Assembly: GCF_002234675.1 (NCBI RefSeq) | Contig: NC_019879.2 | Location: 16,434,464 to 16,498,463, forward strand | DNA: 64,000 nucleotides | Reading direction: 5' to 3' | Source of the DNA: Oryzias latipes | Lineage: Eukaryota; Chordata; Actinopteri; Beloniformes; Adrianichthyidae | Shown: positions 9,513-51,108 of the stretch, one piece after another | Position numbering within the stretch: the first letter of the stretch is position 1 | Layout of the letters: each line of letters begins with the position of its first letter | Notes under the pieces: model-generated | Databases searched by the model: none | What the model was told of the DNA's origin: nothing | Seen by the model: only the letters and a program-made list of their open reading frames with translations | Program-made: the position numbers and the translations under genes

Positions 9513-9820
9513 GGTAAGTATTGTTGCATTGTTAAATAGCATCAACTTTATATTGAATGTACATATTCTTTCTAAATAAGAAAAACAACAACGAAATTTA
9601 CAAAACCAGAGAGTGATTTAACTCGTGTCTGTGTTTTTGCCGAGTTTTGAAATAAAAGAAAAACTGTGTTTTGTTTTGTTTTTTTAGATTTTTAAGAAAG
9701 AGCATTTTTTAAATCACAAGTAAGTACTGGGCGGACCACGCTTCCCCTGACAAATGCTGTTTGAATCAAGTGGAGACTGGCTTTAGCGAACACGAACATT
9801 CGCTAGCATTTTGCGCCATC

Positions 9821-23911
<14,091 letters not shown>

Positions 23912-25882: not shown

Positions 25883-28800
25883 ATGACTGAGAGAACGTGA
25901 ATAAAAACTGTTTTATTGTTTGAAAATCTTTCATTAATGTTCAAACAAGCACTGTTGGGTCTTTATTCAAAACCAATACATTTTTAATCTTTATTAAAAT
26001 AATAGTCTTTCAATGTCTTTCTGTTTGTAACTTTGCAATCAAAGATAAAAAAATGACTTAAAGTTTTCATTTAAATACTGTAAATAAAGATATTTATTTA
26101 CAGTAGTTGCAAACTTTTAGGGAGTAAAGCTCCAATAAAGGAAAAAAAGAGACATGCAGAGTTGAAATAGTGTATTTTCTGCTTCTTTTCAGTGTTTCAT
26201 TGTATAGTAGAGTAGAAAAATCTGACCAGTTCAATCATGGTGCAGTATGATCACCTTATGTTATATGATCTTTTGTTTTGGAGTATCCGGAGGAGAGGAG
26301 GACCTTAAACGACTATTTTTAGCTAGTTTTGTCTATTAATTTATTGTTTTTAACGGTGCGATTTTCACTTGCTGTAATATTTGACAAAAATGTGCATTTC
26401 CTGAAGAAGACTTTATCCTCGACTCAAAAGATCTTGAGATGATCTTAGGTGTGATGTTATGTACAGACACCTGAGAAGGAGAGGAGGACCTTACAAGACA
26501 GAACCAGCCACAGACCTGAGCCGCTGGAGGCTGACCAACAATGAAGGCAGACAGACCTGGAGCTATGTGGAGGAAAACGACACCCCAGACAGAGAGCAGA
26601 CCATGCTAGAAGCATTTAGTCTTGGCTTGGATACTGTGCGTCCACCATCAGCTTGTATTTTGGAACAGTGGTATTTTGTCAAATAAGCTCAAATCAATAT
26701 GTTTGCTTTTACTTTTGGAACTTTTCATGTGTCTTCAGAGCAAGTTTGTTTCTGATAGTCCAGCTGCCGTCACTGCTTCTGATGCCTCTGTGAAAGGTAT
26801 GCAGTTCTACAGTCTACTCCAGGCTGAAGACGGTCACTGGGCTGGGGACTATGGTGGACCCCTCTTGCTGCTCCCAGGTACATCAAATGATTCCTATATA
26901 AATGTTTAAATGCTGCTCTTTTCAATTCCAGTTCTATTCACCCATAGTAGATTTCCAAAGCCAATGTTAGGAAAAGTTATTTATAGTCTCTTATTCTTCC
27001 AGATCTCCATGGCGTCTTTTACAAATATCTTGTACAAAACCTAAAGCATCGTGTAGAGCTTCACAGGAAGCTCAGTTGTATTTGTCTGAATCTCCAATTG
27101 AGGTTTATCCACCAATGTGTTTATGTGAACTTATCGTCTTTCTGCTTGTCCGTATTTTTTTTCCAGGCCTCCTTATAACATGCCATGTGGCTCAGATCCC
27201 GTTGCCTGAAGCCTGGAAGAAAGAGATGGTGAGATACCTTCGCTCAGTTCAGCTGCCAGATGGAGGCTGGGGTCTGTAAGTGACCAGTTTCATGACATAA
27301 ACAACTTTCAGAGGTGAAAACGTGTACTTTGCACTTTTTGTTTATTGCAAATGAAGCATTCTGACATAATCAAGACAAACACAGCGTGAAACTAAAAAAA
27401 TCCTTTTTAAAATCGAAACTAAGTTACTGTTTTTAAAAGTGGTCCATGTTGTGTGGTGTAGTGGAAAAATAATATTTTGTGTCAAATATATTGACTTTCA
27501 ATTTTTAGTTCTCTTTCATTGTCGTCAACCAATAAACAATAAATGCAAATAATCCAAATTTAATATAAATAAACCAAAACTATATTTTGATAGCCGTGCA
27601 TTAGTGTCTCCTAATACACTTCACTCTGCTCTGCATGTTTCACTTTGTTCACCTATTTTACACTCTTTATTCAAATACAATCCCTTGCAAAAGTATTCGG
27701 CCCCTTTGAACTTTTCACCCTTTTGCAAAATTTGAGGCTTCAAACATAAAGATATATAAAACTGTATGTTTTTGTGAAGAATCAACAACAAATGGGACAC
27801 TATCATGTGGAAGTGGAAAGAAATTTATTGAATGTTTCAAACTTGTTTAATTTGCTGATTGTGATTGGCTAATTAGAGGTTTGAATTAATGAGCAGTTGG
27901 TCAGGTGTGCCTAATAAAATGACCAATGGGTGTATGTAACCTTTTCTTAAATCTATGCCAATAGGCTGTGTGAAGATGTGATGTTAAACAGTTAACAGAT
28001 CAGAACAGAACATGATACAGACTGAGTTTCTTCTGTTATTTGAAGTAGAGTTTAAGGCTGATTTTGTGTGTTCATGTTTCTCTGCAGACATATAGAAGAT
28101 AAGTCAACAGTTTTTGGCACTGCATTGAGTTATGTATCCCTGAGAATCCTGGGTGTGGATGCTGATGATCCAGATATGGTCCGTGCCAGAAACAACCTGC
28201 ACGACAAAGGTCAGATTATAAACTCACACAGTCAGGGAAGATCACTGCTGACCCACTGCTGCAGAAACACAAACTGTAAAAAATCTGTGCAAAATGAATA
28301 ATATCCACAACTAAATCGTGTTACATGCTATCAACCCTATTTGTATTTCGTTAAATGTAAAGATATTTAAGTGGTGAGTTTCTTGCAGGTGGAGCAGTTG
28401 GAATTCCCTCTTGGGGTAAATTTTGGTTGGCCATTTTAAATGTCTACAGTTGGGAAGGAATCAACACGTTACTACCAGAGATGTGGTACGTATTGAAAGT
28501 GTCCTCTGCACAAAGGAATTCTCACCAGCTGTTTAATACAGCAGAGCAGAGGGACAGACTTCCATGAAAGGCTGTTTTCCACAACTCCACATTCATTTAG
28601 CATGTTTCAGGCTGTTCCCCACCTGGATGCCAGCCCACCCCTCTACGCTGTGGTGTCACTGCCGCCAAGTCTACCTTTCCATGAGCTACTGTTACGCCCT
28701 CAGACTCAAAGCACAGGAGGATTCCCTCGTTCTTAGCCTCAGACAGGTATGGAAGAGAAAACCAACCACAAGAGGGCGTCTTAATGTGACGTTCATATTT

Positions 28801-31800
28801 TATGGCTGTCTAAAGAAACATCAAGCTGAGTGAGGTGCCTGCTGGCGTATTGGTTAGCACTTGTGCCTCACATTGAGAAGACCTTGGTTTGAACCCTGAT
28901 TGGGGCTTTTCAGTGTCAAACTTGCATGATCTCCTTGCGTATGCATGTTTTTTTTCTGGGCACTCCTGCTTTCTGTGTGTTGTTGTCCATTTCTGTGTAG
29001 CCTGGTGAGTCATCCAGGTCAGCATGTACCCCTACACACACTTGGTTTTTTTTGTCTTTGCCCAGCAGTGGCTACAATCTTGTGACCCTAAAAGGGGTTG
29101 AGCAGCTTTAGAAAGCGAGTGGAGAATTTTGCTGTGAAATGTCAAAATAAATTTTTAAAAATAGTTCCTGCAACTTTCAATAGTTTAATATGGGGTGAGT
29201 TTACAAAATATTACGTGCTACAAATCGTAAATGTAATATACATTTGAAATAAAATAAATCAATTAATTTAACTGTCATTTTTTCATTTTTCTGCAGAAGT
29301 TTACTTTTGAACCGTGTTAACCAGAAAATACCTGTGCATATTTTGCTGCACCAAACAAAGCCTATATTATTACAAAGCCAAATTCTTCACTAAACTATAC
29401 ATCACCAGGCAATCGTTAATCCTAAATCGTAAAATAAATAAAATCAACTTTTTTCATTATATCTAGTAATGCATTTTTATGTTGCTGACTCTATAATTGA
29501 TCTTTGTTCTCAGGAGTTGTATGTTCAGGATTATGCTTCTGTTAACTGGCCTGCTCAGAGGAACAATGTGGCTCCATCCGACCTATACACGCCTCACAGC
29601 GCTCTGCTAACTGTCGCCTACAGTAAGATACTTAGCATTTAAATTCCTGCAAAAGAGGTGCCTTATAATGTGAATGAAAATGTAAATATTCTTTTATTGT
29701 TGTTTAGTAAAACATTTTGGAGAACTTTGTAAGTCATTAGACAGAATACTCCAGACAAACAAGACATTGTTGTTTTCTAATTTATAATAATTCTTTCCAT
29801 GTCTTAAGTGAACTGCGTTCTAAAATAAAACTCACCTAAATTCTATCTGTTATTTTCTCTGCAGTGGTGTTAAACATGTATGAAGCTCATCACAGTGCTG
29901 CGCTCAGAAAAATGGCGGTCAAAGAACTATACGAGCACATCCAGGCCGATGACCGCTTCACTAAGTGCATCAGCATTGGACCGGTACAAGACTCTAAAAA
30001 ATAACTCTAAATAAAAATTAAACTATGTTCATGGCATTAATTTGTAGGATAAAATCCAAACAAATGCAAACAAATGTCATTCTCCTCAGGTCACCAAGTC
30101 TATCCACATGCTGATTTGCTGGTATGTGGATGGGGCTTCTTCAGCAGCCTTTCAGGAACACGTTTCCAGAATTCCCGACTATCTCTGGTCTGTAAACTGC
30201 TGTCATTAAATACTATCAAAATAAATTCTGGCTGTCACTGCTTTCAGTTCGGTCAAAGGAGAGGATTTCTCTTGAATAAAGTGTATTAAAGATTTTTTTC
30301 AGGAAATATTTGCCCTTTCTTGATGTTGAGTAATAAAATATATCAAACATATGTTCTTTTTTTCCAGGTTGGGATTAGATGGCATGAAAATGCAGGTAGG
30401 AATTTCCCTTTGGTTGACTTTTATCTAAGACATCCTGCTTGAGCACAGTCTATAGACTATGTCAGTCGACAATGATGTGCAACAACTTGGAAACATATGA
30501 GGGACAGAAAGTACAAATCATAAACCTCCTCTTTTCTAGATTCACGCTGAACCTATAATGATTCCCTTGTTTGTTTGTTTTTTCTATTTTTCAGAGTTTA
30601 GTTGGATCTCAGCTCTGGGACACTTGCTTTACTGTGCAAGCTTTTCTTGAGGTGAACACATCTGAATAAGTAAAAACAATATTATTTGTGAATGATTCTG
30701 TGAAGAAACTGGTTTTGCTAGATAGGACTGTAAAGGAAAAAAGTTAGGTTCGTACCCTTTCAGTTTCTTGCACACAGAAATGAATGAATAGTGACTCAGA
30801 GACAAAACTTATCTTTAGTGGAAGTTTACTCCGTACAAGAAGCACAAATCAATTTGTACAAAGGGTTACAGACAGATGAACATTTTGCTGCGTTCAAAAG
30901 TCCGAACAACTGAGGCAGGGAGATGGGCTTGGTATAAGAACCCTGCATTTGCATATTCAGAGGATCAGACAGGACAATGGTGTGAATGAATGATGAATGA
31001 ATGGTTGTTGCAGGGAGATGCTCGAAGGTCAGGAAGCTTCAAGTGTCAGATCTCTCTTAAGTTCTCACAGACATTTACCAGAACACAGGCACTAGCACAC
31101 ACAAAGATGAAAAAGGGAGTATGCTGGAGGAATGTTATTAGAAGAATGGTTTTGGTTGTGCTGTCTTCAAATGTAATATAATTTTGAGATGACAATACAT
31201 GCTTAATGAATTAAGTTCAAACCATTAGTGTAATAAAAGTTAAAGGCAGTTTCTAACTATTCATCACAAATCCAGCATAGAAATGTGCTATATCATTCTG
31301 ATTAAGTATGAGTATTACTTGTAGGATATTTTTTCCATGTCAGATGGATAAAAATGTATGGATAACTAAAGGGATTTGAACCAGTTAATCTCTATTGATC
31401 TCTGTGGTACTCAGATCAACTCTATAGTTTTAATTTAGACATGGGGAAGACGAACAGAACACAATAGCCAGTCTGCATTTAAAACAGACTCTCATGTACA
31501 CTTTTCTAAAACAGACATACTAATTCTAATAGTAATGCAGTAAAGAAAAACATCTACATTAGTTGTAACCTTACATGTTAAGATGACATGACTTATTTCA
31601 GGCAGGAGCCCACAACGTCAGCAGATATACTGACTGTCTTCAGAAGGCCCATGGCTTTCTCAACATTACACAGGTATAGTAAATATGCATTTCGGGTTTC
31701 TATTCCCACAAGGCGTATGTGACTTTAATTATCTTTTTATTCTATTAAGGACACCACCAATAATTGTTTTAAATGTTGACATAAATGACTCTCATAATAA

Positions 31801-33648
31801 ATATTTCAAACACCTACTTTCTCTGATCATGCAGATACCTGAGAATCCTCCCGAATACCAAAAATACTACAGACAGATGAACAAGGTACAATATTTTCTA
31901 TATAATATGATATAGAAACAATAAATATTATATCATTATAATTGTAGTTTAATCTGTATATTTTTTTTAAAAAAAGTGAAAGGTTTATCAAAGTGCATGG
32001 ATGCAAATGCAGTAAATGCTCTCTAAATTTCTAAACACATCTGTGTTAGGGCGGCTTCCCCTTCAGTACTCGTGAATGTGACTGGATTGTGGCTGACTGC
32101 ACAGCAGAGGGCCTGAAGTCAGTGATGCTGCTGCAGGAACTCTGTCCCTTCATTAAGGATCACATCCCTTCTGAGCGTTTGTACGATGCTGTCAATGTGG
32201 TGAGTCTATTGGCAGAACCGATTGGTCATTTCCCTGTAAAGCCTTGTATACTGTATTACAATTTACTTGCTATCCTTTTAAGCTGCTGAGCATGAAAAAT
32301 TCAGATGGTGGATTTGCTGCATATGAAACTAAAAGGGGAGGGAGACTCTTGGAGCTGCTAAATCCCTCTGAGGTGTTTGGTAGGTCTACAGCATCATACT
32401 TAACACCACATGTTACTCTATTGTTTGTTTTCACAAAACTCTGTCAGTAAGACACATGCTGAGGGCTTGCTTGTTAGCAGTTCCTCAATTAAAAACTGTC
32501 AAGTACAGTTGATGAAATGGTTGCTCTCTGTGTTCTCCTCTGTGTTCAATAGGTGACATTATGATAGATTACACATATGTGGAGTGTACTTCAGCAGTGA
32601 TGCAGGCTCTGAGGCACTTCCAGAAGGTGTACCCAAATCACCGTGCAGAGGAGATAAGGTTCAAACACAGCAGATATTTTGGATTGGAGGTTGGGAATGA
32701 CATCTAAATTCTGAATATACATTTTGTGATTTTTCAGGTCAACTCTGCATGAAGGACTGGAGTACTGCAGGAGGGTACAAAGGCCTGATGGATCCTGGGA
32801 AGGGTGAGAATTCACTTTTTGTTTTGCTGCAAGATTCCTTATGTCATTACATGCTCAGTAATTTAGTGCTTGTGCTCAGATCTTGGGGAGTTTGTTTCAC
32901 GTATGGGATCTGGTTCGGACTGGAAGCTTTTGCTTGCATGGGACACACTTACAAGCAAGAGTAAGTTCTGCAAAAAATATGCTGGAAAAAAATTGCAACA
33001 ACACTTTTAGTGAAGTCCTTGTGGGATAACAAAATAGTTTTTATTTTCTTTGTTAGCAGTGGTGTGTGTGAGGAGGTGCAGAAAGCTTGTCAGTTTCTGC
33101 TGGACTGGCAGATGTCAGATGGAGGGTGGGGGGAAGACTTTGAGTCATGCGAGCAGCGATGCTACGTCCAAAGCAGTGCCTCACAGATACACAACACCTG
33201 CTGGGCTTTGTTGGGGCTAATGGCCGTCAGGTAAAGCATTTCTTTCTATAAACATCAGTAGTTATGCAGAAATAAACAAATCCTTATTTAGAAATCTATG
33301 TTCTGTTTTACTTTAATCTAAAATGGTGTGTAATCAGGCATCCAAACAGACAAGCCATTGAGAGAGGAGTTCAGTTGCTGGTTAATAAACAGCTTCCCAA
33401 TGGAGACTGGCCTCAGGTGACTGAATATTTGTTCCAAATCTACTTTAAAATACAATGTAGTACTTTATCAAATATTTAAATGTAATGTGATTTTGTTTTC
33501 CTTCTTGCAGGGAAACACCGCTGGTGTTACTTGCAAAAATTGTGCAGTCAGTTATGTGTCCTACAAGAACATTTTTCCAATCTGGACCCTGGGCCGCTTC
33601 TCAAAGCTTTACCCCAATAATCAGTTGGCTGGAAGGATGAAGCTGTGA
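25883..33648 (+). CDS. lss: Lanosterol synthase paralogue lss-a with altered active site (22 exons)
   Basis: An oxidosqualene cyclase. Exons: 25883-25896, 26467-26635, 26739-26877, 27167-27275, 28088-28209, 28389-28485, 28611-28746, 29514-29622, 29865-29983, 30090-30187, 30368-30395, 30595-30651, 31602-31673, 31835-31885, 32050-32199, 32283-32379, 32553-32658, 32738-32803, 32880-32960, 33057-33230, 33338-33416, 33511-33648. Total 2211 nt, 736 codons plus stop, as in lss-b, with all introns GT-AG. The catalytic acid is kept in VADCTAE (Asp codon 32095-32097), as are [23 protein letters not shown] and the QxxDGxW repeats. Changes against human and lss-b (human numbering): P239S, I338V, V346I/R347C, G380S/T381L/N382V, G450D, F696T/N697C/S699N, and an R-to-W in exon 20. 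The tiny first exon (MTERT, donor GTGAAT) is the weakest part. An intact frame argues for an active gene; the product is unknown and may not be lanosterol. Confidence 0.9.
27680..27930. mobile_element. Tc1/mariner-type MITE fragment in lss-a intron 4
   Basis: The stretch begins cccttgcaaaagtattcggc and continues with the sequence typical of Tc1-mariner terminal regions in fish (gaggcttcaaacataaagat). It is absent from the matching intron of lss-b. I see no clear opposite end, so it is probably a solo terminal fragment. Confidence 0.55.
28845..29120 (+). repeat. tRNA-derived SINE in lss-a intron 7
   Basis: A degenerate copy of the same SINE family as at 12062: head ggttagcacttgtgcctcac, B-box-like ggtttgaaccctg, body cttgcatgatctccttgcg, tail ttgtgaccctaaaaggg. 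It is absent from the matching intron of lss-b, so it inserted after duplication or was removed there by conversion. Confidence 0.7.
30652..31601 (+). other. lss-a intron 12, contains unassigned inserted sequence
   Basis: This 950 bp intron shares little with the corresponding lss-b intron (44865-45498), apart from short patches near its 3' end. No protein-coding signature or clear repeat ends were seen. Confidence 0.4.
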
Positions 33649-35229: not shown

Positions 35230-35642
35230 ACCACCACGGTGGCGCAACCACTGCGCCACTGTGCGCAGTGGTTAGCCACTTGCCTCACAGCAAGAAGGCC
35301 CCCGGTGCAAGTCCCGGCTGGGGGACATGAAAAACACAACATCAATGGGGGACCTTTCTGTGTGGAGTTTGCATGTTCTCCCCGTGCATGCGTGAGTTTT
35401 CTCCGGGATCTCCGGCTTCCTCCCACCGTCCAAAAACATGCTACATAGGTTGATTGGCAACTCTAAATTGTCCATAGGTGTGAATGTGAGAGTGAATGGA
35501 TGTGTGATTGTGGATATTCTACCCTGCGACAGACTGGCGACCAGTCCAGGGCATCCCTTGCCTACGCCCAAGTGGCTGTGATAGGCTCCGGCAACCCGTG
35601 ACCCCGAAATTGGAATAAAACGGTTAAGAGGATGAATGATGA
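35230..35642 (+). repeat. tRNA-derived SINE, near full length
   Basis: The most complete copy of the family. Head ggttagccacttgcctcaca with B-box-like ggtgcaagtcccg; body ggagtttgcatgttctcccc and ggcttcctcccaccgtccaa; distal part gactggcgaccagtccaggg and gataggctccggcaac; A-rich tail near 35620. The first 25 bases (ccaccacggtggcgca...) form a short inverted head. It lies in the intergenic gap upstream of lss-b. Confidence 0.85.
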
Positions 35643-35729: not shown

Positions 35730-36050
35730 GTGTGGGTGGCGCAGTGATTAGCTCTCTTGCCTCACAGCAAGAAGGCCTGTGGTTCAAGTCCTGGCTGTGG
35801 GACCTGAAACAGAGCACCAGTGGGGGACATTTCTGTGGAGTTTGCATGTTCTCCCCATGCCTGCGTGGGTTTTCTCCAGGGTCTCCACCTTCCTCCCACC
35901 GTCCAAAAACAGGTTAATTGGTTAAGCTAAATTGTCCCTAGGTGTAAATGGGTGTGTGATCCCCTGCCTTCGCCCACAAGTGGCTGGGATAGGCTCCGGC
36001 AGCCCTGTGACCCTAAAAGGGATAAAACTGCAGAAGATGAATGAAAAAAA
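35730..36050 (+). repeat. tRNA-derived SINE, second copy next to 35230
   Basis: Same family and orientation as the neighbour: head gtggcgcagtgattagctct, B box ggttcaagtcctg, body ggagtttgcatgttctcccc, tail gataggctccggcagccctg. It lacks part of the internal region between 'aaattgtcccta' and 'cgcccacaag'. Confidence 0.85.

Positions 36051-36527: not shown

Positions 36528-51108
<14,581 letters not shown>

What the first reader, a model, noticed from the sequence alone, without database searches (positions are those of the whole stretch)
33511..33575. lss-a replaces the F696-N697 product-specificity segment
Human [11 protein letters not shown] is kept in lss-b but is [11 protein letters not shown] in lss-a (Thr codon 33529-33531). 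Human F696 (yeast Erg7 F699) lines the cavity near the late carbocation. From memory, yeast F699T gives protostadienol, and fungal protostadienol synthase differs from lanosterol synthase in the adjoining NKSCAIS segment. lss-a may therefore stop or redirect rearrangement and make a protostane or another triterpene.
Basis: partly seen in the sequence, partly recalled or inferred. Interest (0 to 1): 0.9.

Follow-up and report, generated by a model that had tools for sequence, protein, structure and literature searches.

The report
Fish lanosterol-synthase twin with altered pocket
A fish genome, probably medaka, carries two neighbouring copies of the enzyme that makes the first sterol, and one copy keeps its catalytic parts but has changed about a quarter of the residues that hold the product, so it may make a different triterpene.

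Summary
The window holds two tandem 21-exon oxidosqualene cyclase genes, lss-a (26459-33648) and lss-b (37398-51108), each open for 734 residues. A whole-genome search found no third. lss-a is F696T, N697C, S699N, I702V and T705V against human LSS. Of 34 human residues listed as within 5 A of lanosterol, lss-b matches human at 34 and lss-a at 26. lss-a differs at 103, 338, 380, 381, 502, 696, 697 and 702 (p 4.5e-5; p 0.0013 with the reported segment left out). The catalytic residues are unchanged.

The paralogs are old, but most exons have been recently homogenised. Exons 9-12 and about 60 bp at the start of exon 21, the reported segment, stay diverged.

In a plant cyclase, changing the Phe equivalent to F696 to Ala or Ser yields protosta-13(17),24-dien-3beta-ol. 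Two bacterial cyclases share the T696-V705 pair of lss-a.

Best reading: an active cyclase with a changed product, possibly a protostane. No product, expression or other-fish data could be obtained, so the product change is inferred, not shown.

The parts
26459..33648 (+). lss-a, 21 exons, 734 codons plus stop; tandem LSS paralog with altered cavity
   Evidence: Exon map against human 1W6K, splice sites and frame, Pfam SQHop_cyclase N and C
37398..51108 (+). lss-b, 21 exons, 734 codons plus stop; human-like LSS
   Evidence: Parallel exon structure; 34 of 34 cavity residues as in human
33511..33573 (+). Codons 690-710 of lss-a exon 21: the reported segment; diverged island with F696T, N697C, S699N, I702V, T705V
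   Evidence: 22 of 81 coding differences; 9.8 of 13.3 synonymous sites differ
33511..33648 (+). lss-a exon 21
30090..31673 (+). lss-a exons 9-12 with their introns: second diverged island; holds I338V, G380S, T381L
   Evidence: dS 0.36 in exons 9-12; introns 9-12 53-76% identical to lss-b
30595..30651 (+). lss-a exon 11, [14 protein letters not shown]380S, T381L, N382V beside W387
30368..30395 (+). 28-base micro-exon 10 of lss-a (44581-44608 in lss-b)
26739..26877 (+). lss-a exon 2; its single difference from lss-b is F103L (human number)
32283..32379 (+). lss-a exon 15; T502A beside the unchanged Y503
32050..32199 (+). lss-a exon 14; catalytic D455-C456 unchanged, G450D
50971..51108 (+). lss-b exon 21, [11 protein letters not shown] kept

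Best explanation
lss-a is an old tandem paralog of vertebrate lanosterol synthase that still folds as an oxidosqualene cyclase and still starts the reaction with D455 and its cysteine partners. Its product pocket has been altered around the D ring, the side chain and the site of final proton loss (696, 697, 702, 380, 381, 502, 338, 103). Most likely it carries oxidosqualene to the protosteryl cation and then loses a proton before the full series of hydride and methyl shifts, or at another carbon, giving a non-lanosterol triterpene alcohol. A protostane such as protosta-13(17),24-dien-3beta-ol is the leading single candidate (about 0.35). lss-b supplies lanosterol. Gene conversion keeps most exons of the twins alike, and selection probably keeps the pocket islands apart. 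Shown: gene structures, residue changes, mosaic pattern. Inferred: activity, product, selection.
For: Intact 21-exon gene with GT-AG introns. 8 of 34 cavity residues changed in lss-a and 0 of 34 in lss-b, still p 0.0013 without the reported segment. Y98, W192, H232, W387, F444, D455, C456, Y503, C533 and W581 unchanged. Diverged islands in a homogenised gene. dN/dS 0.28 in exons 9-12 and 21 and no indel there. Plant F728A/S gives protosta-13(17),24-dienol. T696 with V705 in two bacterial cyclases. T381 is the CAS Tyr410 position.
Against: No product or expression data. Tests against neutral change are moderate: p 0.05 or 0.0125 and 0.015. Catalytic residues 455, 456, 503, 533 and 581 lie in homogenised exons, so their identity may reflect recent conversion. 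In the same plant enzyme S533A and I734L (near the 502 and 702 positions) had only weak or moderate effects. I338V is the common state in bacteria (58 of 82). The two T696 bacterial enzymes have unknown products. Within the reported segment changes are not enriched at cavity positions (p 0.30).
Confidence: 0.6

Rival explanations
1. lss-a is still mainly a lanosterol synthase whose pocket tolerates the changes; the copies differ in tissue, regulation or kinetics.
For: Proton donor and the H232/Y503 pair unchanged. Yeast Erg7 Phe699Leu is viable although deletion is not (PMC5256870, passages), so change at this Phe need not abolish lanosterol. Proximal upstream similarity ends about 140 bases before the ATG, so regulation may differ.
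Against: Eight cavity changes against none in lss-b; F103 and F696 are nearly invariant in bacteria (81 of 81 and 79 of 81 covered rows).
Confidence: 0.2
2. lss-a is a decaying or catalytically dead copy, repeatedly patched by conversion from lss-b; pocket changes reflect lost constraint.
For: 25 derived changes in lss-a against 6 in lss-b; catalytic residues lie largely in converted exons; neutrality tests are only moderate.
Against: Open frame and splice sites in the diverged exons, dN/dS 0.28, no indel in 393 coding bases, excess of changes at cavity positions.
Confidence: 0.15
3. Assembly error: chimeric joining of near-identical tandem genes produced the mosaic.
For: Near-identical tandem genes are hard to assemble and identity steps are abrupt.
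Against: A frame-keeping 60-base block with near-saturated synonymous change is not an expected mis-join; four introns differ by about 1 to 2.3 kb between copies.
Confidence: 0.05

Closest known systems
Human lanosterol synthase (PDB 1W6K, 1W6J)
   Same: Same fold family and length; 535 of 725 aligned residues; catalytic residues kept
   Different: 8 of 34 residues within 5 A of lanosterol changed in lss-a
Sea cucumber parkeol and lanostadienol synthases
   Same: Animal LSS relatives, tandem, with cavity changes that alter product (PMC9236903, PMC6018497; passages)
   Different: There LSS was lost and residue 444 is the switch; here a human-like LSS remains and F444 is kept
Fungal protostadienol synthase (A. 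fumigatus, Cordyceps farinosa)
   Same: Extra cyclase beside lanosterol synthase in one genome; adjoining segment altered (PMC8227516, passages)
   Different: Fungal motif ACPGGMR against CKNCAVS in lss-a; product of lss-a unknown
Plant protostahopenol synthase mutants F728A, F728S
   Same: Small residue at the position equivalent to human F696; protosta-13(17),24-dienol made (PMC11951148, passages)
   Different: Laboratory mutants of a plant enzyme; lss-a has seven further cavity changes
Myxococcal-phylum cyclases L098 and L112
   Same: Natural T696 together with V705
   Different: F103, T502, N697 and I702 kept and Y381; products unknown

Membership tests
Oxidosqualene cyclase family | SQHop_cyclase N and C domains over the whole protein | tested here: met
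   190.3 and 148.1 bits, cut-offs 26.1 and 26.2
Oxidosqualene cyclase family | Catalytic Asp455 with Cys456 and Cys533 | tested here: met
   Unchanged in lss-a
Lanosterol synthase (orthologous function) | Conserved cavity residues, including F696 and T381 | tested here: not met
   F696T, T381L and six others; lss-b meets it, 34 of 34
Lanosterol synthase (orthologous function) | His232 and Tyr503 pair credited with final deprotonation | tested here: met
   Both unchanged; role from PMC9236903, passages
Lanosterol synthase (orthologous function) | Product is lanosterol | not testable with these tools
   Needs expression and GC-MS
Fungal protostadienol synthase | ACPGGMR-type segment after the Phe | tested here: not met
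   lss-a reads CKNCAVS; motif
Fungal protostadienol synthase | Protostadienol product | not testable with these tools
   No product data
Sea cucumber parkeol or lanostadienol synthase | Leu or Gln at residue 444 | tested here: not met
   F444 kept; rule

The most novel reading that the evidence does not exclude
A vertebrate has a dedicated second oxidosqualene cyclase that makes a non-lanosterol triterpene, such as a protostane, with its pocket kept distinct from its housekeeping twin by selection against gene conversion at two short islands. That would imply an undescribed vertebrate branch of triterpenoid metabolism in a genetic model fish.
Probability: 0.5. Interest if true: 0.9.

Novelty: new variant of a known kind. 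Interest (0 to 1): 0.78.

Why it matters
Animals generally use their cyclase to make lanosterol; the only animal exceptions in the papers I saw are sea cucumbers. If lss-a makes another skeleton, vertebrates have a triterpene branch that has not been looked for. The apparent host, medaka, is a genetic model, so knockout and lipid profiling are direct. The locus is also a natural experiment: conversion has erased most differences between the twins but not those at two pocket-forming islands, so it points at residues that may set the product.

Tried and rejected
Pseudogene by simple inspection: not preferred, because frames and splice sites are intact and the diverged exons have no indel. The statistics against neutrality are only moderate.

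Sterol-response promoter difference: a scan of 1 kb upstream for the SREBP consensus with up to two mismatches gave none for lss-a and one for lss-b; uninformative.

T696 unknown in nature: wrong. Two of 81 covered bacterial rows carry it, although a first panel had Phe in 15 of 15 covered rows.

Tailoring enzymes around lss-a: none seen, but only 10 of the 179 ORFs were scanned, and short exons would be missed.

Strict island test: with islands cut to exons 9-12 and codons 690-710, 6 of 9 conserved cavity residues changed against 13 of 74 others (p 0.0038); the broader cut gave p 0.0006. Island limits were chosen after seeing the data.

Literature on a second vertebrate LSS: searches; I saw their listings only, and no listed title or abstract start reported one. 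Structure prediction and fold search were not run.

Full report
Setting. The window lies in a genome of 734,051,031 bases in 25 contigs. MCM3AP/GANP domains lie upstream of lss-a on the + strand; human LSS is also next to MCM3AP (recalled). A whole-genome search with the lss-b protein gave 39 matches, all inside these two genes (only the best candidates are scored), so no third LSS was found.

Gene models. Exons were located by reading the lss-a region through in three frames against human LSS, then fixing splice sites. Both genes have 21 exons of equal lengths, 20 GT-AG introns and 734 codons. Four lss-b introns are about 1 to 2.3 kb longer than in lss-a, and a Tc1-type transposase remnant lies in lss-b intron 13.

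The pocket as a whole. A docking paper lists 34 residues of 1W6K within 5 A of lanosterol (PMC4191879, Table 3, passages); I used the list unchanged. Over 725 aligned positions lss-b equals human at 554 and lss-a at 535. lss-b differs from human at 171 positions, none in the cavity (8.0 expected). lss-a and lss-b differ at 36 positions, 8 in the cavity: F103L, I338V, G380S, T381L, T502A, F696T, N697C, I702V (p 1.2e-4). Among the 554 positions where human and lss-b agree, lss-a changed 25, of which 8 of 34 cavity positions (p 4.5e-5). Leaving out the reported segment, 5 of 29 cavity positions changed against 12 of 505 others (p 0.0013); within the segment alone there is no enrichment (3 of 5 against 5 of 15, p 0.30). 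By comparison with human, 25 changes are derived in lss-a, 6 in lss-b, and 5 are unresolved. Twenty-six cavity residues are unchanged in lss-a, among them Y98, W192, W230, H232, W387, F444, V453, D455, C456, Y503, C533 and W581.

Mosaic history. DNA identity between the copies runs in blocks: 97.5% around exons 1-3, 94.5% around exons 4-6, 69-73% over 29.5-32.0 kb, and 94.5-97.6% from just before exon 14 to the end. Introns 10-12 are 53-60% identical, introns 7-9 68-79%, and introns 1, 2, 4, 5, 14 and 16-20 93-100%; introns 3, 6, 13 and 15 were not aligned because of large insertions. dS is 0.006 in exons 1-6 and 0.36 in exons 9-12, while exons 7 and 8 are low (0.125, 0.045) between diverged introns. 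In codons 690-710 about 9.8 of 13.3 synonymous sites differ; codons 711-735 have dS 0.10. The simplest account is an old duplication followed by repeated conversion of most exons, with exons 9-12 and the first 60 bases of exon 21 left out. Within exons 7-13 and 21, 6 of 12 conserved cavity residues changed against 13 of 153 others (p 6e-4); elsewhere 2 of 22 against 4 of 367 (p 0.04). With the stricter cut the figures are 6 of 9 against 13 of 74 (p 0.0038), and 2 of 25 against 4 of 446 (p 0.036). The cuts were made after seeing the data, so these values are descriptive.

Is lss-a alive? For: open frame and splice sites, dN/dS 0.28 in exons 9-12 plus 21, and no indel in 393 coding bases where the intron rate gives p 0.015. 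A binomial test against neutral change gives 0.05 if all nonsynonymous change is put on lss-a and 0.0125 if 80% is. These are moderate. Catalytic residues sit largely in recently converted exons, so their identity is weaker evidence than it looks. No expression data were available.

Natural comparison. I examined 85 bacterial loci, 82 distinct proteins, 41-50% identical to lss-b. They are 16 of the 80 loci kept (the other 64 are 23-27% identical), the 30 best of 56 matches, 29 of 109 and 10 of 11; the loci left out of the last two fetched sets, L091 and L092, repeat genomes already present as L014 and L026. Residue 696 is Phe in 79 of 81 covered rows and Thr in 2; 103 is Phe in 81 of 81; 381 is Tyr in 81 of 82 and Glu in 1; 697 is Asn in 73 of 81 and Ser in 8; 502 is Thr in 63 and Ser in 19 of 82. 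Against my reading, Val at 338 is the common bacterial state (58 of 82) and Ser at 380 occurs in 2. The two T696 rows, L098 and L112, are 70% identical to each other and are the only rows besides lss-a with V705. A type 2 IPP isomerase lies beside L098 and a squalene-synthase-like gene, below its curated cut-off, beside L112. A kept T696-V705 enzyme line suggests that T696 is compatible with function. It is one bacterial lineage and one fish gene, so it is suggestive only.

Mechanism. In a plant protostahopenol synthase F728A and F728S lower or abolish the normal product and give (20R)-protosta-13(17),24-dien-3beta-ol; F728A also gives a parkeol-related compound; S533A and I734L, which by numbering fall near 502 and 702, had only moderate or weak effects (PMC11951148, passages). 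I equate F728 with human F696 from the shared spacing 728/734/736 and 696/702/704 (residue list in PMC5118845, passages). A yeast single substitution with the same product is known to me by title only (reference list); that it is F699T is recalled. Phe728His of a beta-amyrin synthase shifts its main product to germanicol (PMC8617677, passages). Residue 381 lies in KMQGTNGSQ of lss-b, which matches KMQGYNGSQ of Arabidopsis CAS1, where Tyr410 is a key residue (PMC7060231, passage); lss-a has KMQSLVGSQ. Yeast Erg7 Phe699Leu is a viable allele selected in nystatin (PMC5256870, passages). Together these make early or displaced proton loss the likeliest outcome for lss-a, with a protostane as leading candidate. 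The exact product cannot be predicted from eight changes.

Compared with known systems. Sea cucumbers lack LSS and carry two changed cyclases in tandem, with residue 444 as the switch (PMC9236903, passages); their products include parkeol and 9beta-lanosta-7,24-dienol (PMC6018497, passages). A fungus keeps lanosterol synthase and adds protostadienol synthase with an ACPGGMR segment (PMC8227516, passages). lss-a resembles the fungal arrangement, but in a vertebrate and with its own residues. Listings of searches showed no paper on a second vertebrate LSS; most subscription journals are not in that library, so absence from print is not shown.

Verdict.

Noticed in passing
L098:1-1878 (+) and L112:1468-3564 (-): Two cyclases from genomes of one bacterial phylum (that of L017, Myxococcus) carry Thr at human position 696 with Val at 705, next to isoprenoid genes; product unknown.
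   Followed up: partly
44847-45376 and 49341-49883: The end of lss-b exon 11 with part of intron 11 is duplicated (96% identical) inside lss-b intron 15.
   Followed up: no
45962-46180 and 47417-47641: Inverted repeats (93%) flank a Tc1-type transposase remnant, 46281-47464 (-), in lss-b intron 13.
   Followed up: no
29514-29622 and 29865-29983: lss-a exons 7 and 8 are about 97% identical to lss-b although the introns around them are strongly diverged, so conversion tracts there seem barely longer than the exons.
   Followed up: no
9761-20436: MCM3AP/GANP domains on the + strand upstream of lss-a.
   Followed up: no
35263-35495 and 35739-35959: Direct repeat, 81% identical, between the two lss genes; a related stretch lies near 12064-12282.
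   Followed up: no
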